Assembly: GCA_030609125.1 (NCBI GenBank) | Contig: JAUWCW010000079.1 | Coordinates: forward strand, 1-8,167 | Reading direction: 5' to 3' | Source of the DNA: JAUWCW01 sp030609125 [NCBI: Candidatus Rokuibacteriota bacterium] | GTDB taxonomy: Bacteria > JAUVQV01 | Length of the DNA stretch: 8,167 bases | In this document: piece after piece, positions 1 to 8,167 of the stretch | Position numbering within the stretch: the first letter of the stretch is position 1 | How the letters are laid out: each line of letters opens with the position of its first letter | Program-made: the position numbers and the translations under genes | The notes under the pieces: model-generated | What the model was told of the DNA's origin: nothing | The model's input: the letters and a program-made list of their open reading frames with translations, nothing else | Database searches by the model: none

Positions 1-1240
1 GGGCGTCCTCGACGAGCTTGATGATCTGGGCGAGCGCCGTGTCCTTTCCGATCCGGGTGGCCTCGAAGGTGAACGAGCCGGTCTTGTTGATGGTGGCCCC
101 CGTCACCGTGTCGCCGGCGGACTTCTCGACCGGGATGCTCTCGCCGGTGAGCATCGACTCGTCGACGCTGGAGTGGCCCTCGACGACGGTTCCGTCCACG
201 GGGATCTTCTGGCCCGGCTTGACGAGCACGATGTCCCCGACGGCTACCTCGTCGATGGGGATCTCCTTCTCCTTGCCGTCGCGGATGACGGTGGCCGTCT
301 TCGGCTGCAGGCCCATGAGGGTCTTGATCGCCTCCGAGGTCTTGCCCTTGGCGAGCGCCTCGAGGAGTTTGCCCATGAGAATGAAGGTGATGAGGACGCC
401 GGCCGTTTCGTAGTAGAGGTCGTCGGCGCCGAAGCCCGGGCGGCCCATCCAGACGGCGGTGCTCACGGCCAGGCTGTAGAGCCAGGCGGCGCCGGTGCCG
501 ATGGCGACGAGGGTGTCCATGGTGGCCGTCTTCGTCCGGGCCAGCGCGAGAAGGCCCCGGGAGTAGAACTGGCTGTTCACCACGAGGATCGGCGTGGCGA
601 GGAGAAACTGGATAAGCGCGATCGCGCCGTCGCTGAAGGGGAGGGGAGGCAGGCCCACCATGGGGCCCATGGCGACGTACAGGAGGGGAATGGCGAGACA
701 GACCGATACGAGAAACTTCAGCTTGAGGGTGCCGATCTCCTTTTCGCGTGCCTCCTTCTCGCGGTCCGCCGTTGTCTCCTCCTCCCGCACGGGGGTGTAG
801 CCCGCGTCGCTCACCGCTTTTTCGATATCGGCGATGGAGACGCGGGCGGGGTCGACATCGACGGAGGCCTTTTCGGTGGCCAGATTGACGCGTGCATCCG
901 AGACTCCTTCGATGCCCTTGAGGGCCTTTTCGACGGAGGCGACGCAGGAGGCGCAGTGCATGCCCTTGACGCCGATGGCTATGGTGCCGGGCGTGGAGGC
1001 GGGCGCCTCCTTCACCGGGGTGTAGCCGGCATCGGAGATGGCCTTCTCGAGGTCCTCCCTCGATGCGAAGCCCGGGTCGAAGTCGATGGAGGCCTTTTCC
1101 GCGGCGAGGTTGATCCGCGCGTCGGAAACGCCCTCGACGCTCTTGAGGGCCTTTTCCACCGAGGCGACGCAGGAGGCGCAGGTCATCCCCGTAACGCCGA
1201 TGGTTACGCGCCGCTCCTCTTTCTTTTCCGCGTCAGCCAT
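1..1240 (-). CDS. copA: Copper-translocating P1B-type ATPase CopA, N-terminal part (runs off the left edge)
   Basis: Predicted inner-membrane pump that uses ATP to export Cu(I) from the cytoplasm. The start is the ATG at 1240-1238, preceded by GGTGGGG. The frame stays open for 413 codons to the window edge. Residues 12-76 and 87-151 are two heavy-metal-associated (HMA) domains, with metal-binding GMTCASC (C21, C24) and GMHCASC (C96, C99). A charged linker follows, then membrane helices including [15 protein letters not shown], the MDTLVAIGT segment typical of CPx ATPases, and the actuator-domain TGES motif near residue 365. The CPC motif, the phosphorylation motif DKTGT and the nucleotide-binding domain would lie beyond the edge and are not seen. 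Cu(I) specificity is inferred from the family pattern and from csoR in the same operon; Ag(I) is also possible. The gene starts 34 bases after the end of the small selenoprotein candidate. Confidence 0.95.
788..1207 (-). repeat. Tandem duplication of the HMA domain inside copA
   Basis: Two copies of a 65-residue unit at a 75-codon period: 1207-1013 (copy 1) and 982-788 (copy 2). By eye about 48 of 65 residues are identical. The stretch from the CASC motif through VEKALK is identical in both, as are EGVSDAR and SDAGYTPV. The two copies are also close at nucleotide level, suggesting a fairly recent internal duplication or gene conversion. Two HMA domains are common in CopA; this level of similarity is what stands out. 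Confidence 0.8.
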
Positions 1241-1274: not shown

Positions 1275-1433
1275 TCAGGCGAGGGGACAGCAACCCCCTC
1301 CCTTGCGGTCGTCCTTGCCCGTTCCGCTGCCTTCACCAGCACCGTGGTGATGGGAGGGGCCTCAGCCGCCGCCGGTGAAGATCTTGTAGACGATAAAAAG
1401 AACAAACGCGATCAGAAAGACATTTTCCACCAT
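1275..1433 (-). CDS. Small membrane protein with a candidate selenocysteine (52 residues), in the csoR-copA operon
   Basis: I do not recognise a named family. The ATG at 1433-1431 lies 7 bases after the csoR stop and follows an AGGGGG ribosome-binding sequence overlapping that stop. Residues 1-23 form one hydrophobic helix (MVENVFLIAFVLFIVYKIF) ending in Thr-Gly-Gly-Gly. Codon 24 is TGA (1364-1362). The frame stays open 28 more codons to a second TGA at 1277-1275. That tail is not random: it starts Gly-Pro-Ser-His-His-His-Gly, is rich in Gly, Lys and Asp, and ends GGGCCPLA. A stem-loop just after the TGA fits a bacterial SECIS element. If read as Sec, the protein is a membrane-anchored peptide with likely soft-metal ligands Sec24, H28-H30, C48 and C49. 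A role in handling Cu(I) between CsoR control and CopA export is inference. The alternative is a 23-residue hydrophobic peptide ending at the first TGA. A second, independent Sec candidate in this window supports Sec decoding in this genome. Confidence 0.68.
1333..1364 (-). promoter_or_regulatory. Bacterial SECIS-like hairpin after the in-frame TGA of the small membrane protein
   Basis: Reading the minus strand, TGA at 1364-1362 is followed by 17 bases, of which the last six (TCACCA, 1350-1345) are the left arm. The loop CGGTGC is at 1344-1339 and the right arm TGGTGA at 1338-1333, giving six perfect pairs. Known bacterial SECIS elements sit inside the reading frame directly after the UGA. 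They have an apical loop starting roughly 16-37 bases downstream and a G in the first two loop positions, often within GGU. All three traits are present. Folding energy was not computed. Confidence 0.6.
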
Positions 1434-1440
1434 GCACCCC

Positions 1441-1707
1441 CTACGGTTTTCTGAACCTTGAGATCAGTTCGAGGATCTCGCTGATTTTCGTCTCCTTGTC
1501 GGCATCGCTCCCCTCGCTGAGCGAGTCGTGCACACAGGTCTCGATATGATGTTTGAAGATGTTGTCCTGGACCTTGCAGAGGGCGTTGATGGCCGAGCGA
1601 AGCTGCAGAAGAACGTCGACGCAGTAACGCTCCTCCTCGATCATCTTCTTGATCCCGCGCACCTGCCCCTCGATCCTGCTGAGGCGGGCGATCTGTGCCT
1701 GCTCCAT
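1441..1707 (-). CDS. csoR: Copper-sensing transcriptional repressor CsoR
   Basis: Small all-helical DNA-binding protein (88 residues) of the CsoR/RcnR family. It represses copper-export genes until Cu(I) binds. The family Cu(I) ligands are visible with the right spacing: C29, H54 and C58 (H-x3-C; 25 residues between the first Cys and the His, as in the characterised CsoR). The N-terminus LSRIEGQVRGIKKMI is the family signature. I chose the ATG at 1707-1705. The frame is open further upstream to 1803, but that part crosses the promoter and does not resemble the family. It heads the operon csoR - small Sec protein - copA, and is probably autoregulated through the operator-like sequence in its promoter. 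Confidence 0.93.
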   Translation of the reverse strand: MEQAQIARLSRIEGQVRGIKKMIEEERYCVDVLLQLRSAINALCKVQDNIFKHHIETCVHDSLSEGSDADKETKISEILELISRFRKP

Positions 1708-1713
1708 GTCCTT

Positions 1714-1743
1714 AATATAGGGTACCCCCCCATGGCATGTCAA
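1714..1743 (-). promoter_or_regulatory. csoR operon promoter with an operator-like palindrome in the spacer
   Basis: On the minus strand: -35 TTGACA (1743-1738, perfect), 18-bp spacer, -10 TATATT (1719-1714). The last base of the -10 lies 7 bases before the A of the csoR ATG, so transcription should start at or next to the start codon (leaderless). The spacer contains seven Gs and the perfect palindrome GGGTACCC (1720-1727). CsoR operators are typically GC-rich pseudo-palindromes with G-tracts, so this is a plausible operator. A-rich tracts at 1753-1770 sit where an UP element would. Confidence 0.7.
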
Positions 1744-1870: not shown

Positions 1871-3364
1871 ATGCTGAAATACCTGAGAACCTCCATATTC
1901 GCGGTGGGAGTGACCGGCACGGTCATGATCCTTGCCTCACTTTTCTGGAACGCATCGCAGGTGCACAAGAGCACCATCGAGGAGGCACGGATCCAGGCGC
2001 GCATCGCCCACGACGAGGACGTCGTCTACCGCAACTGGAACTCCCGGCACGGCGGCGTCTACGTCAGAGTTACCGACGAGACCCGGCCGAACCCCTACCT
2101 CGCCGACGTTGCCGACAGGGACATCACCACGACCACGGGGGAGCGCCTGACGCTCGTCAACCCCGCCTTCATGACCCGACAGGCCCACGAGTACGCCGGC
2201 GAGTGGCACAACGTGGCGGGGCACCTCACCAGCCTCAATCCCATACGGCCCGGAAACAAGCCCGACCGGTGGGAGTGGTCGGCGCTCCTGGATTTCGAGG
2301 AGGGGGCTGAGGAGGTGAGCTCCGTCGCCATGGTGGACGGTGTCGAGTACTTTCGCCTCATGAAGCCCCTCGTGGCCGAGCAGGAATGCCTCGGATGCCA
2401 TGCGGGCCAGGCTTACAGCCCCGGCGAGATCCGCGGCGGGATCAGCATGGCCGTGCCGATGAAGCCCATGCGGACGATCGAGCGCAGCACCATCCTGAAG
2501 CTGATTATGGCCCACGCGGCCCTGTGGATCGTCGGCTTCACGGCGCTTCTCGCGGGGGGGCGAAGACTCATGCGGGCAGAGGAGGCGCGGAGCTCCGCCG
2601 AGGAAGACCTGAAGGTCCACGCCCGCAAGCTGGAAGAGTCGAACCGGCTCAAGGACCTGTTCACCGACATCATGCGCCACGACCTGCTGAACCCGACGGG
2701 GATCATAAATTGCTACGCTGATTTTATCCTCGAGCGGGAAGTGGATCCGCGGACGAGGGACTTCAGCGTCAAGATCAAGAACACCGCCGCCCGGCTGATC
2801 AACATGATCGACAACGCCTCGCGTTTCACTCACCTGAAGGAGATGGAGGCGGTGGAGTGCGAGGATCTCGACCTCGGCGCCGTCATCGAAGAGGCGATGC
2901 TGGAAGTGGAGGAGTGCTGCGGCGGCGCCGGCGTGGAGCTCGTCTATCGGCCCAGCGGGGAATTCCCCATCCGCGCCAACACCATGCTCGAGAACGTCTT
3001 CGTCAACCTTTTTTCGAACGCGGCCAAGTACGCGCCCGAAGGCGAGAGGGTGGAGGTCGACATCGAGGACGGGGGGAAGCTCTGGACCGTCTCGGTGAAG
3101 GATTTCGGAGTGGGCATTCCCGACGAAGAAAAGGAGCGGGTCTTCTGCCGCTTCGAGCGGCTGCGCAAGGAAGGTGTTCAGGGCACGGGACTCGGCCTGG
3201 CGATCTCACGCCACCTCGTCGAGCTCCACGACGGTGTCATCTGGGCGCAGGACAACCCTGAAGGGGGCGCGATCTTCATGGTCAGCCTTCCCAAGGATGG
3301 TCCGCGGACGGACAGACTGCAGGTCCCTCGCCTTGAGCTTCTGGAAGAGCGGCTTTCAGCCTGA
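1871..3364 (+). CDS. Membrane sensor histidine kinase with a periplasmic heme-c (DUF3365/Tll0287-like) domain
   Basis: 497 residues. A membrane helix at about residues 7-27 is followed by a periplasmic domain to about residue 210. This domain ends with CLGCH (C173, C176, H177), a CxxCH heme-c attachment motif; the overall pattern resembles the Tll0287-like/DUF3365 domain. A second membrane helix (about 212-230) is followed by a coiled-coil signalling helix (about 235-262). The dimerisation and phosphoacceptor motif MRHDLLNPTG puts the phospho-His at H270. The ATPase domain shows the N box NLFSNAAKY (379-387), DFGVGIP (D411) and GTGLGLAI (from 438). It probably senses redox state or a small gas ligand through heme; the signal is not known. 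No response regulator is in the window, so it is an orphan kinase here. It is divergent from the csoR operon. The Shine-Dalgarno sequence is weak (GAGAAG, over 10 bases upstream). Confidence 0.9.
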   Translation: MLKYLRTSIFAVGVTGTVMILASLFWNASQVHKSTIEEARIQARIAHDEDVVYRNWNSRHGGVYVRVTDETRPNPYLADVADRDITTTTGERLTLVNPAFMTRQAHEYAGEWHNVAGHLTSLNPIRPGNKPDRWEWSALLDFEEGAEEVSSVAMVDGVEYFRLMKPLVAEQECLGCHAGQAYSPGEIRGGISMAVPMKPMRTIERSTILKLIMAHAALWIVGFTALLAGGRRLMRAEEARSSAEEDLKVHARKLEESNRLKDLFTDIMRHDLLNPTGIINCYADFILEREVDPRTRDFSVKIKNTAARLINMIDNASRFTHLKEMEAVECEDLDLGAVIEEAMLEVEECCGGAGVELVYRPSGEFPIRANTMLENVFVNLFSNAAKYAPEGERVEVDIEDGGKLWTVSVKDFGVGIPDEEKERVFCRFERLRKEGVQGTGLGLAISRHLVELHDGVIWAQDNPEGGAIFMVSLPKDGPRTDRLQVPRLELLEERLSA

Positions 3365-3393: not shown

Positions 3394-3609
3394 TCAGGAG
3401 CCTCCGTAGCCGATGGTGACCTTCCCTCCGTCCAGGATGACGGGAACGTCGCGCCGTCCCTTGCTGTGCCGGAGCATCTCGTCCAGGAGGGCGCGGTCCG
3501 CTTTCACGTCCCGGTAGTCAACCTCCCGTCCCTCGGCTGAGTAGGCCTCACGGGCCTTCACGGTGTAGGGTCAGCTGGCCTTTCCGTAGATGATGACCGC
3601 GTCCGACAT
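3394..3609 (-). CDS. Glutaredoxin-like selenoprotein (UPYT active site)
   Basis: 71 residues, ATG at 3609-3607 with a good Shine-Dalgarno AAGGAGGAG. The protein begins with the beta strand AVIIYGKAS, then an in-frame TGA at codon 13 (3573-3571), then Pro-Tyr-Thr. Sec-Pro-Tyr-Thr replaces the Cys-Pro-Tyr-(Cys/Ser) active site of glutaredoxins. The rest follows the glutaredoxin/thioredoxin fold: VKAREAY helix, EVDYRDVKAD strand, a helix, then cis-Pro VPVILDGGKVTIGYGG. The fold on both sides of the TGA is continuous, which excludes a true stop. A SECIS-like hairpin follows the TGA. NCBI naming includes a UXX-star (seleno)protein family that this may belong to. Thiol/selenol redox chemistry in the cytoplasm is likely, perhaps with a monothiol-type mechanism because the second Cys is Thr; the substrate is unknown. 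Ordinary gene calling would drop it or start it after the TGA. Confidence 0.9.
3543..3573 (-). promoter_or_regulatory. Bacterial SECIS-like hairpin of the glutaredoxin-like selenoprotein
   Basis: On the minus strand, 18 bases separate the TGA (3573-3571) from the apical loop. The arms are AGGCC (3557-3553) and GGCCT (3547-3543), five perfect pairs. The loop is CGTGA (3552-3548), with G in the second position followed by T. Position and loop pattern match the rule for bacterial SECIS elements and closely match the hairpin at 1333-1364. Confidence 0.65.
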
Positions 3610-3644
3610 GGCTCTCTCCTCCTTCTCTTACGAATCGCTCCCCC

Positions 3645-8061: not shown

Positions 8062-8102
<41 letters not shown>

Positions 8103-8167
8103 TCGGGACAGCCAATATGGTGTCTCTTTGGCAACCCGCCGAAAAGCAAAGAGTTTCAAGGAATGAC
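8103..8167. other. Unidentified sequence following the tRNA-Arg break
   Basis: 65 bases of no recognised origin. They contain a 7-bp perfect inverted repeat, CTCTTTG (8124-8130) and CAAAGAG (8147-8153), around a 16-base loop. I could not fit a group I intron P1 helix to the tRNA exon, and no tRNA 3' half is present. The stretch is too short to call. Confidence 0.3.

What the first reader, a model, noticed from the sequence alone, without database searches (positions are those of the whole stretch)
1275..1433. Candidate undescribed selenoprotein embedded in a CsoR-CopA copper operon
Seen: between csoR and copA, with a good ribosome-binding site, a 23-codon membrane helix runs into TGA. The frame then continues 28 codons with a His-His-His motif and a GGGCC end. 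A six-pair hairpin with the loop CGGTGC begins 17 bases after the TGA, fitting the bacterial SECIS rule. Known: selenocysteine UGA codons in bacteria need such an in-frame hairpin, and small Cys/His-rich membrane peptides occur next to metal transporters. Inference: a membrane-tethered Sec/His/Cys peptide that binds or passes on Cu(I), or protects against copper-driven oxidation. Pairing Sec with a copper-export operon would be unusual, and standard annotation would miss the gene.
Basis: partly seen in the sequence, partly recalled or inferred. Interest (0 to 1): 0.9.

Follow-up and report, generated by a model that had tools for sequence, protein, structure and literature searches.

The report
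Copper-operon membrane selenoprotein with cysteine relatives
A tiny membrane gene between a copper sensor and a copper pump seems to use a UGA codon to insert selenocysteine where its relatives in other bacterial phyla have cysteine, which points to an unnamed family of copper-handling peptides with a selenium version.

Summary
On the minus strand, between csoR and copA, a 52-residue frame reads membrane helix-GGG-(TGA)-GPSHHHG...RKGGGCCPLA-stop. The genome has selA, selB, selD (itself with in-frame TGA) and tRNA-Sec. Searches with the protein found no relatives; looking in the csoR-copA slot did: a same-order genome ends ...RGGGGG-TGA-GC-stop, and genomes of other phyla carry cysteine forms (...FRGGGCGGSHGGHKK...). 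I keep 20 members from 17 genomes: TGA in 2, Cys at that site in 17, neither in 1. Four other members end in a (K/R)G1-3CC tail like the window's RKGGGCC, which lies after the TGA. An early His cluster plus a CC end follows 2 of 11,267 TGAs sampled, the window's own being one. No Pfam or NCBIfam model passed its cut-off for the members scanned. The hairpin fits the bacterial SECIS rule, but so do 9.4% of TGAs sampled in this genome, and competing folds exist. Best reading: a genuine selenocysteine form of an unnamed family of membrane-tethered Cys/His peptides that hand Cu(I) to CopA. Identity is well supported by computation; copper handling is inferred; nothing is shown experimentally.

The parts
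1275..1433 (-). small selenoprotein gene (candidate), 52 residues with TGA read as Sec
   Evidence: homologues; synteny
1365..1433 (-). codons 1-23: single membrane helix plus GGG linker
   Evidence: AlphaFold2 helix 2-22, block pLDDT 90 and 87 in residues 1-20; KD window 2.77
1362..1364 (-). in-frame TGA, proposed selenocysteine 24; aligns with Cys in 17 of 20 family members and with TGA in one other
1333..1350 (-). SECIS-like hairpin UCACCA-CGGUGC-UGGUGA, loop 17 nt after TGA
   Evidence: weak on its own (9.4% base rate, competing folds)
1278..1361 (-). 28-codon tail GPSHHHGAGEGSGTGKDDRKGGGCCPLA, predicted disordered, Cys/His ligand-rich
   Evidence: CC ends in four other members
1441..1707 (-). 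csoR, Cu(I)-type C-H-C ligand spacing (Cys29, His54, Cys58 counted from the ATG at 1707)
   Evidence: PF02583 E 9.3e-25; ligand rule recalled
2..1240 (-). copA, 5' part only (HMA domains, start of the ATPase); contig ends
1714..1743 (-). csoR promoter TTGACA-18-TATATT with CsoR-like operator ACCATGGGGGGGTACC in the spacer
   Evidence: same layout in G001; similar operator in G109; operator type recalled

Best explanation
The gene encodes a 52-residue selenoprotein, the Sec form of an unnamed family of small membrane-tethered Cys/His peptides that occupy the place copZ often has in csoR-copA operons. Copper releases CsoR from its operator, the csoR-small-copA transcript is made, SelB with tRNA-Sec reads UGA 1364-1362 as Sec with the help of the hairpin that follows, and the peptide inserts as one helix with N out and C in. 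Sec24, the HHH cluster and the terminal CC then bind Cu(I) at the inner face of the membrane and pass it to the HMA domains or the entry site of CopA. Shown: the frame, the Sec machinery, the Cys/TGA correspondence, the synteny. Inferred: Sec insertion itself, orientation, copper binding and relay. The confidence below is for the identity (a real selenoprotein of this family); for the Cu(I)-relay step I would say about 0.45.
For: selA 593.7 bits, selB 314.5, selD 367.9 with in-frame TGA, tRNA-Sec anticodon TCA. A second selenoprotein, UXX-star family 1, lies in the same window. Cys homologues found with the G109 protein alone, not with the window: 6 of 12 genomes of that phylum, G109 itself included and G197 only at E 0.036. 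Alignment puts U24 on the family Cys; over 20 members 2 U, 17 C, 1 neither. Four other members (G193, G109c, G058a, G171) end in (K/R)G1-3CC like the window. Same-order genome G001, in a different family, has TGA at the same place in the same slot. The order csoR-small-copA holds in 7 of 20, and a CPC/HMA/YHS ATPase or part of one lies near in 6 more. Lys/Arg 27 on the C side of the helix core against 5 on the N side in 20 members.
Against: The hairpin is not special: 9.4% base rate, no better than shuffles, and in the 40-nt context the SECIS pairs have probability about 0.1 (0.46-0.99 in the five other lengths). No Rfam SECIS match. The profile of the 7 independent Cys rows scores the real protein at 18.0 bits against 9.6 without the tail, but 128 of 1555 random TGA tails and 453 of 2000 shuffled tails do as well; with 17 Cys-family rows 23.9 bits, 6 of 1555 and 144 of 2000. 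G001 keeps only two codons after its TGA. Only one sequence carries TGA plus long tail, and it is a fragmented draft genome. The window has no Lys/Arg in the 12 residues after its helix core. No direct evidence for copper.
Confidence: 0.72

Rival explanations
1. The TGA is a plain stop. The product is a 23-residue membrane peptide ending in GGG and the downstream frame is a decaying remnant of a Cys ancestor (Cys codon changed to TGA), or the TGA is an assembly error.
For: Only two codons remain after the TGA in G001; the SECIS signal is weak; draft genome of 376 contigs; the frame is open for 28 codons after 688 of 1555 TGAs, so openness alone means little, and in the strictest profile test 128 of 1555 random tails score as well.
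Against: The tail keeps the HHH cluster and CC end, a combination found after 1 of 1482 TGAs, itself. Two genomes of different families both have TGA, not TAA or TAG, at this codon, and this genome has the full Sec machinery. If the stop were ancestral, a neutral tail should have decayed (inference).
Confidence: 0.17
2. The small frame is a regulatory leader: its translation, and whether ribosomes pass the UGA and hairpin, sets translation of copA 34 nt downstream, making pump production depend on selenium or copper (compare control by a nascent exported protein in copper sensing).
For: Short frame directly upstream of copA in one strand, with hairpin. A copper system controlled by a nascent chain exists (PMC9973294, search listing and abstract start only).
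Against: Relatives lie downstream of copA (G058a, G139), are fused to a YHS domain (G169) or stand after csoR without an ATPase found nearby (G109b), which a leader would not. Cys/His residues are conserved as protein.
Confidence: 0.06
3. It is a selenoprotein, but works as a redox or metal-scavenging peptide (thiol/selenol buffer against Cu or Hg and oxidants) and does not deliver copper to CopA. (This rivals the mechanism, not the identity, so its odds overlap with the best explanation.)
For: Many selenoproteins are redox-active; the review PMC13188914 suggests Sec as a possible metal ligand in metal-resistance selenoproteins without proof (passage read). For 5 of 20 members no ATPase or CsoR was found within 3 kb in the stretch fetched.
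Against: Linkage with csoR and copper-type ATPases in most members, and a linker-like tail of His and Cys rather than a thioredoxin-like fold.
Confidence: 0.3

Closest known systems
DUF2933 (PF11666)
   Same: Small one-helix protein with a Gly/His-rich tail (architecture recalled), encoded beside copper P-type ATPases (PMC8478169, passages read); family member G032 matches weakly (E 0.019, 15.5 bits against cut-off 21).
   Different: No DUF2933 match for the window protein or 17 other members scanned; G169 was not scanned. The family here has a conserved Cys or Sec after the helix and sometimes a CC end.
FeoB-associated Cys-rich membrane protein (recalled, PF12669)
   Same: Short N-terminal helix followed by a Cys-rich tail; one such-looking protein (G341) scored at the edge of the profile (label recalled).
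   Different: Iron, not copper, context (recalled); no match to it in the 19 members scanned against Pfam.
CopZ copper chaperone
   Same: Small Cu(I) carrier encoded between or beside csoR and copA (recalled).
   Different: CopZ is a soluble HMA fold (recalled); this has no HMA match and is modelled as a helix with a disordered tail.
Known metal-linked selenoproteins: SaoC, CopZ-family 2Fe-2S selenoproteins, Sec cation ATPase, SO_0444 Cu/Zn exporter, KCU-star
   Same: Sec linked with metal handling; SaoC and KCU-star are listed with a CU motif (Table 1 of PMC13188914).
   Different: None of the families named in that table is described as a one-helix csoR-copA protein, and NCBIfam gave no match for the window protein.

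Membership tests
bacterial selenoprotein | Sec machinery in the genome (selA, selB, selD, tRNA-Sec) | tested here: met
bacterial selenoprotein | in-frame TGA aligning with Cys in homologues | tested here: met
   17 of 20 members Cys, 2 TGA, 1 neither
bacterial selenoprotein | TGA-containing homologue in another organism | tested here: met
   G001, same order, different family; but its tail is only two codons
bacterial selenoprotein | SECIS: loop 16-37 nt after UGA, G in the first two loop bases, stem 4-16 bp, MFE <= -7.5 (model from PMC13188914) | tested here: inconclusive
   geometry met (17 nt, loop CGGUGC, 6 bp); energy -6.4 for the bare 18-nt hairpin, -7.2 for 22 nt, -9.3 for 25 nt; 148 of 1567 TGAs fit the geometry with >=6 bp; competing folds
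bacterial selenoprotein | selenium found in the protein | not testable with these tools
   needs 75Se or mass spectrometry
DUF2933 (PF11666) | score over Pfam's gathering cut-off | tested here: not met
   no match for the window protein; best of the 19 members scanned is G032, 15.5 bits against 21
CopZ / HMA domain | HMA fold with CxxC | tested here: not met
   no HMA match; model is one helix and a disordered tail
Cu(I)-transfer peptide for CopA | binds Cu(I) and transfers it to CopA | not testable with these tools
   inferred from synteny and ligand residues only

The most novel reading that the evidence does not exclude
A cross-phylum, still unnamed family of membrane-tethered Cu(I)-relay peptides stands in for CopZ in csoR-copA operons. 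In one poorly sampled phylum its key ligand is selenocysteine, so a selenolate carries copper to the pump. The same-order relative (28 residues, ...GGGGG-Sec-Gly-Cys, with its SECIS-like hairpin beyond the stop codon) would be among the smallest selenoproteins.
Probability: 0.4. Interest if true: 0.8.

Novelty: new variant of a known kind. Interest (0 to 1): 0.62.

Why it matters
Selenoprotein genes are cut short by standard annotation, and this one is too small and too diverged for ordinary homology search: searches with the protein in viral contigs, genome contigs, plasmids and 98 related genomes gave nothing real, and only the gene-order route found the relatives. If true it adds a selenoprotein family tied to copper efflux, shows a selenol used as a probable soft-metal ligand, and points to a family of Cys/His membrane peptides in at least five phyla for which no Pfam or NCBIfam model passed its cut-off. 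It makes a clear question testable: does Sec improve Cu(I) capture at the membrane over Cys?

Tried and rejected
Direct searches with the read-through protein led nowhere: viral contigs, genome contigs, plasmids (9 weak partial matches, none covering 80%), phylum (only itself, 1 of 2). In 98 genomes 8 matched at E <= 0.1, one being its own; the other 7 (G032, G041, G049, G065, G075, G093, G095) read as unrelated frames (three of them lie on the minus strand, were first read on the wrong strand and were read again). The G109 protein against plasmids: no match. A scan of 88 CsoR loci for the architecture gave 7 rows: 2 for the window itself, G109, G001, and 3 (L036, L041, L073) that I rejected as noise (it demanded a ribosome-binding site, so misses are possible). 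A stricter pattern scan gave nothing but the window and noise.

Profile hits dropped from the family: G160, G093, G080, G228, G339 (5 of 16 genomes); G160 (SHOCT-like, recalled), G228 (FtsH-like, recalled), G269 (part of a 338-residue open frame), G315 (DUF2933-like), G341 (FeoB-associated-like) (5 of 20 genomes), read. The window's genome and G001 are not among the matches listed; the listing does not show whether they were in that sample. In A2 the rows of G049 and G169 were cut short, so 'CC in last 10' for G049 is not its true C-terminus; I count only G000, G193, G109c, G058a, G171 as having a CC end. The start of G197 is taken at an internal M of a longer open frame, and the G058b row lacked its first two residues.

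The profile test of the tail was weaker than hoped and is told in the Against line. Rfam for a SECIS: none. Literature: in the titles and abstract starts listed by searches I saw no paper on a csoR-copA selenoprotein; only open-licence PMC papers are held, and the two Haft papers that name many new families are not held. I saw PMC13188914 by abstract, section 5, parts 1 and 2 of section 7 and passages; PMC12013277 and PMC8478169 by passages; PMC9973294 by listing and abstract start.

Full report
What is there. The window's left part is a minus-strand operon csoR (1707->1441), a small frame (1433->1275) and copA (1240->2, cut by the contig end). The small frame starts with ATG at 1433 and reads MVENVFLIAFVLFIVYKIFTGGG, TGA, GPSHHHGAGEGSGTGKDDRKGGGCCPLA, TGA. 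CsoR has the Cys-His-Cys spacing of Cu(I)-sensing CsoR (rule recalled; read from the sequence). The promoter before csoR has TTGACA, 18 bases, TATATT, with ACCATGGGGGGGTACC in the spacer; the same layout stands before csoR in G001, and G109 has TATACCATAGGGGGGTAT, so the operon is very likely copper-regulated by CsoR (inference).

Sec machinery. The genome holds selA (TIGR00474, 593.7 bits), selB (314.5, cut-off 242.25), selD (367.9) with its own in-frame TGA, and tRNA-Sec (67.9 bits; anticodon TCA). The window itself carries a second selenoprotein gene, UXX-star family 1, with TGA at 3573-3571. So UGA decoding as Sec is to be expected in this organism.

Finding the relatives. Searches with the protein itself failed. 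I therefore used CsoR to reach the gene slot. A CsoR search of 192 genomes gave 61 places, of which 30 were held as loci; with the 58 CsoR loci from genome contigs that makes 88 loci, scanned for a helix with a Cys/Sec tail. Apart from the window, G001 (same order) and G109 (CsoR 63% identical) carried one between csoR and copA. G001: MEQYWWVVLVVVWAGWILLRGGGGG-TGA-GC-TAG. G109: MTSGNIITILLVVGFGYMMFRGGCCGGHGGKHGG....

The family. The G109 protein alone finds matches in 6 of the 12 genomes held of its phylum, itself included, at E <= 0.05. A profile of 9 rows matched 16 of 386 genomes at E <= 0.01, and one of 17 rows 20 of 385 at E <= 0.001; these lists overlap, and I dropped 5 genomes from each as false (listed under tried and rejected). 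The 9-row profile includes the window's own row; the rows do not depend on it. I retain 20 proteins in 17 genomes, including the window. The first Cys/Sec after the helix is TGA in 2 and Cys in 17; G109c lacks it. The members lie in at least five phyla, judged by separate phylum searches. No Pfam model passed its cut-off for the 19 members scanned, and no NCBIfam model for the 16 scanned; G169 was scanned in neither, G139, G058b and G171 in Pfam only.

Gene order. csoR-small-copA in the same orientation: G000, G001, G109a, G192, G193, G199, G200 (the last with about 0.5 kb between small gene and ATPase frame), 7 of 20. A copper-type ATPase or part of one within about 3 kb: G109c, G058a, G169, G139, G074, G171, 6 more. 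CsoR only: G109b (with 44) and G049 (1.3 kb off). None, or far, in the stretch fetched: G197, G202, G226, G032, G058b (motifs by pattern, not by curated models; G197 and G058b lie near contig ends).

Is the tail real? Against: a profile of the seven independent Cys rows gives the real protein 18.0 bits and 9.6 without the tail, yet 128 of 1555 random TGA tails and 453 of 2000 shuffles of the tail reach 18.0. With 17 non-TGA rows: 23.9 bits, 6 of 1555 and 144 of 2000. So the general Gly/His/Cys make-up, not a long alignment, carries the signal. For: two His or more within 8 residues after the TGA plus CC within the last 8 before the stop occurs after 1 of 1482 TGAs in this genome's loci, itself, 0 of 315 in G001's, and 2 of 11,267 in the CsoR loci, one being itself. 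These two features were chosen after seeing the relatives: of the 17 members with Cys there, 17 have at least one and 14 at least two His in the next 8 residues, and 4 of the 18 members without TGA have a CC end (G193, G109c, G058a, G171).

The hairpin. Loop CGGUGC begins 17 nt after the TGA with 6 bp below it. Comparisons: selD of this genome loop GGCCCT at 20 nt, 7 bp; UXX-star loop CGTGA at 18 nt, 5 bp; G001 selD loop CGTGCT at 20 nt, 8 bp; the G001 small gene GGCCCC-GGUUC-GGGGCC, loop 21 nt after TGA, or a 7-bp form with loop GUU (and sequence). The rule with >=6 bp is met by 148 of 1567 TGAs in G000 loci and 38 of 266 in G001 loci, so the hairpins are compatible but weak; of the comparison genes, UXX-star is also no better than shuffles (z 0.30 and -0.26), while the two selD hairpins lean better (z -1.56, -1.11). 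In the window the outer pairs have probability about 0.65, 0.1, 0.95, 0.98, 0.55, 0.6 in contexts of 36, 40, 45, 50, 60, 89 nt, the innermost pair somewhat less; in G001 0.69-1.0 throughout.

Mechanism. AlphaFold2 gives one helix (residues 2-22, pLDDT near 90) and a disordered tail (mean 62.5, pTM 0.34). Across 20 members Lys+Arg total 5 before and 27 in the 12 residues after the helix core, Asp+Glu 13 and 2, which by the positive-inside rule (recalled) places the Cys/Sec/His tail in the cytoplasm; the window's own sequence has no Lys/Arg in those 12 residues, so for it this rests on the family. A cytoplasmic, membrane-held soft ligand set next to CopA fits a Cu(I) relay in place of CopZ. This is inference.

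Verdict. A selenocysteine version of a real, unnamed family is the best reading; plain stop or decay is the main rival and is not excluded without an experiment. Novelty: a new selenoprotein family by computation, in a known kind of system.

Noticed in passing
window 3394-3612 (-), TGA at 3573-3571: A second selenoprotein gene: UXX-star family 1 (NF041114, E 1.4e-31), which ORF listing shows only as a truncated frame starting after the TGA.
   Followed up: partly
window 1708-1743 (-): csoR looks leaderless: TATATT ends six bases before the ATG, with the CsoR-like operator in the promoter spacer; the same layout is in G001 (L098 about 1428-1467).
   Followed up: partly
window 1871-3364 (+): Divergent from csoR: a histidine-kinase-like protein (recalled motifs) whose sensor part carries a heme-type CxxCH (ECLGCHAG).
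   Followed up: no
window 8063-8167 (+): The contig end starts like a tRNA-Arg(TCT) (by eye) and departs after the anticodon loop; Rfam and ARAGORN find no tRNA or intron there.
   Followed up: partly
L130 1275-1601: In G169 the small family protein is fused to a YHS metal-binding domain (by motif), just upstream of a YHS-containing ATPase frame.
   Followed up: no
G000 versus G109 and G001: CsoR of the window is closer to that of another phylum (G109, 63%) than to the same-order G001 (51%), hinting at transfer of the operon.
   Followed up: no
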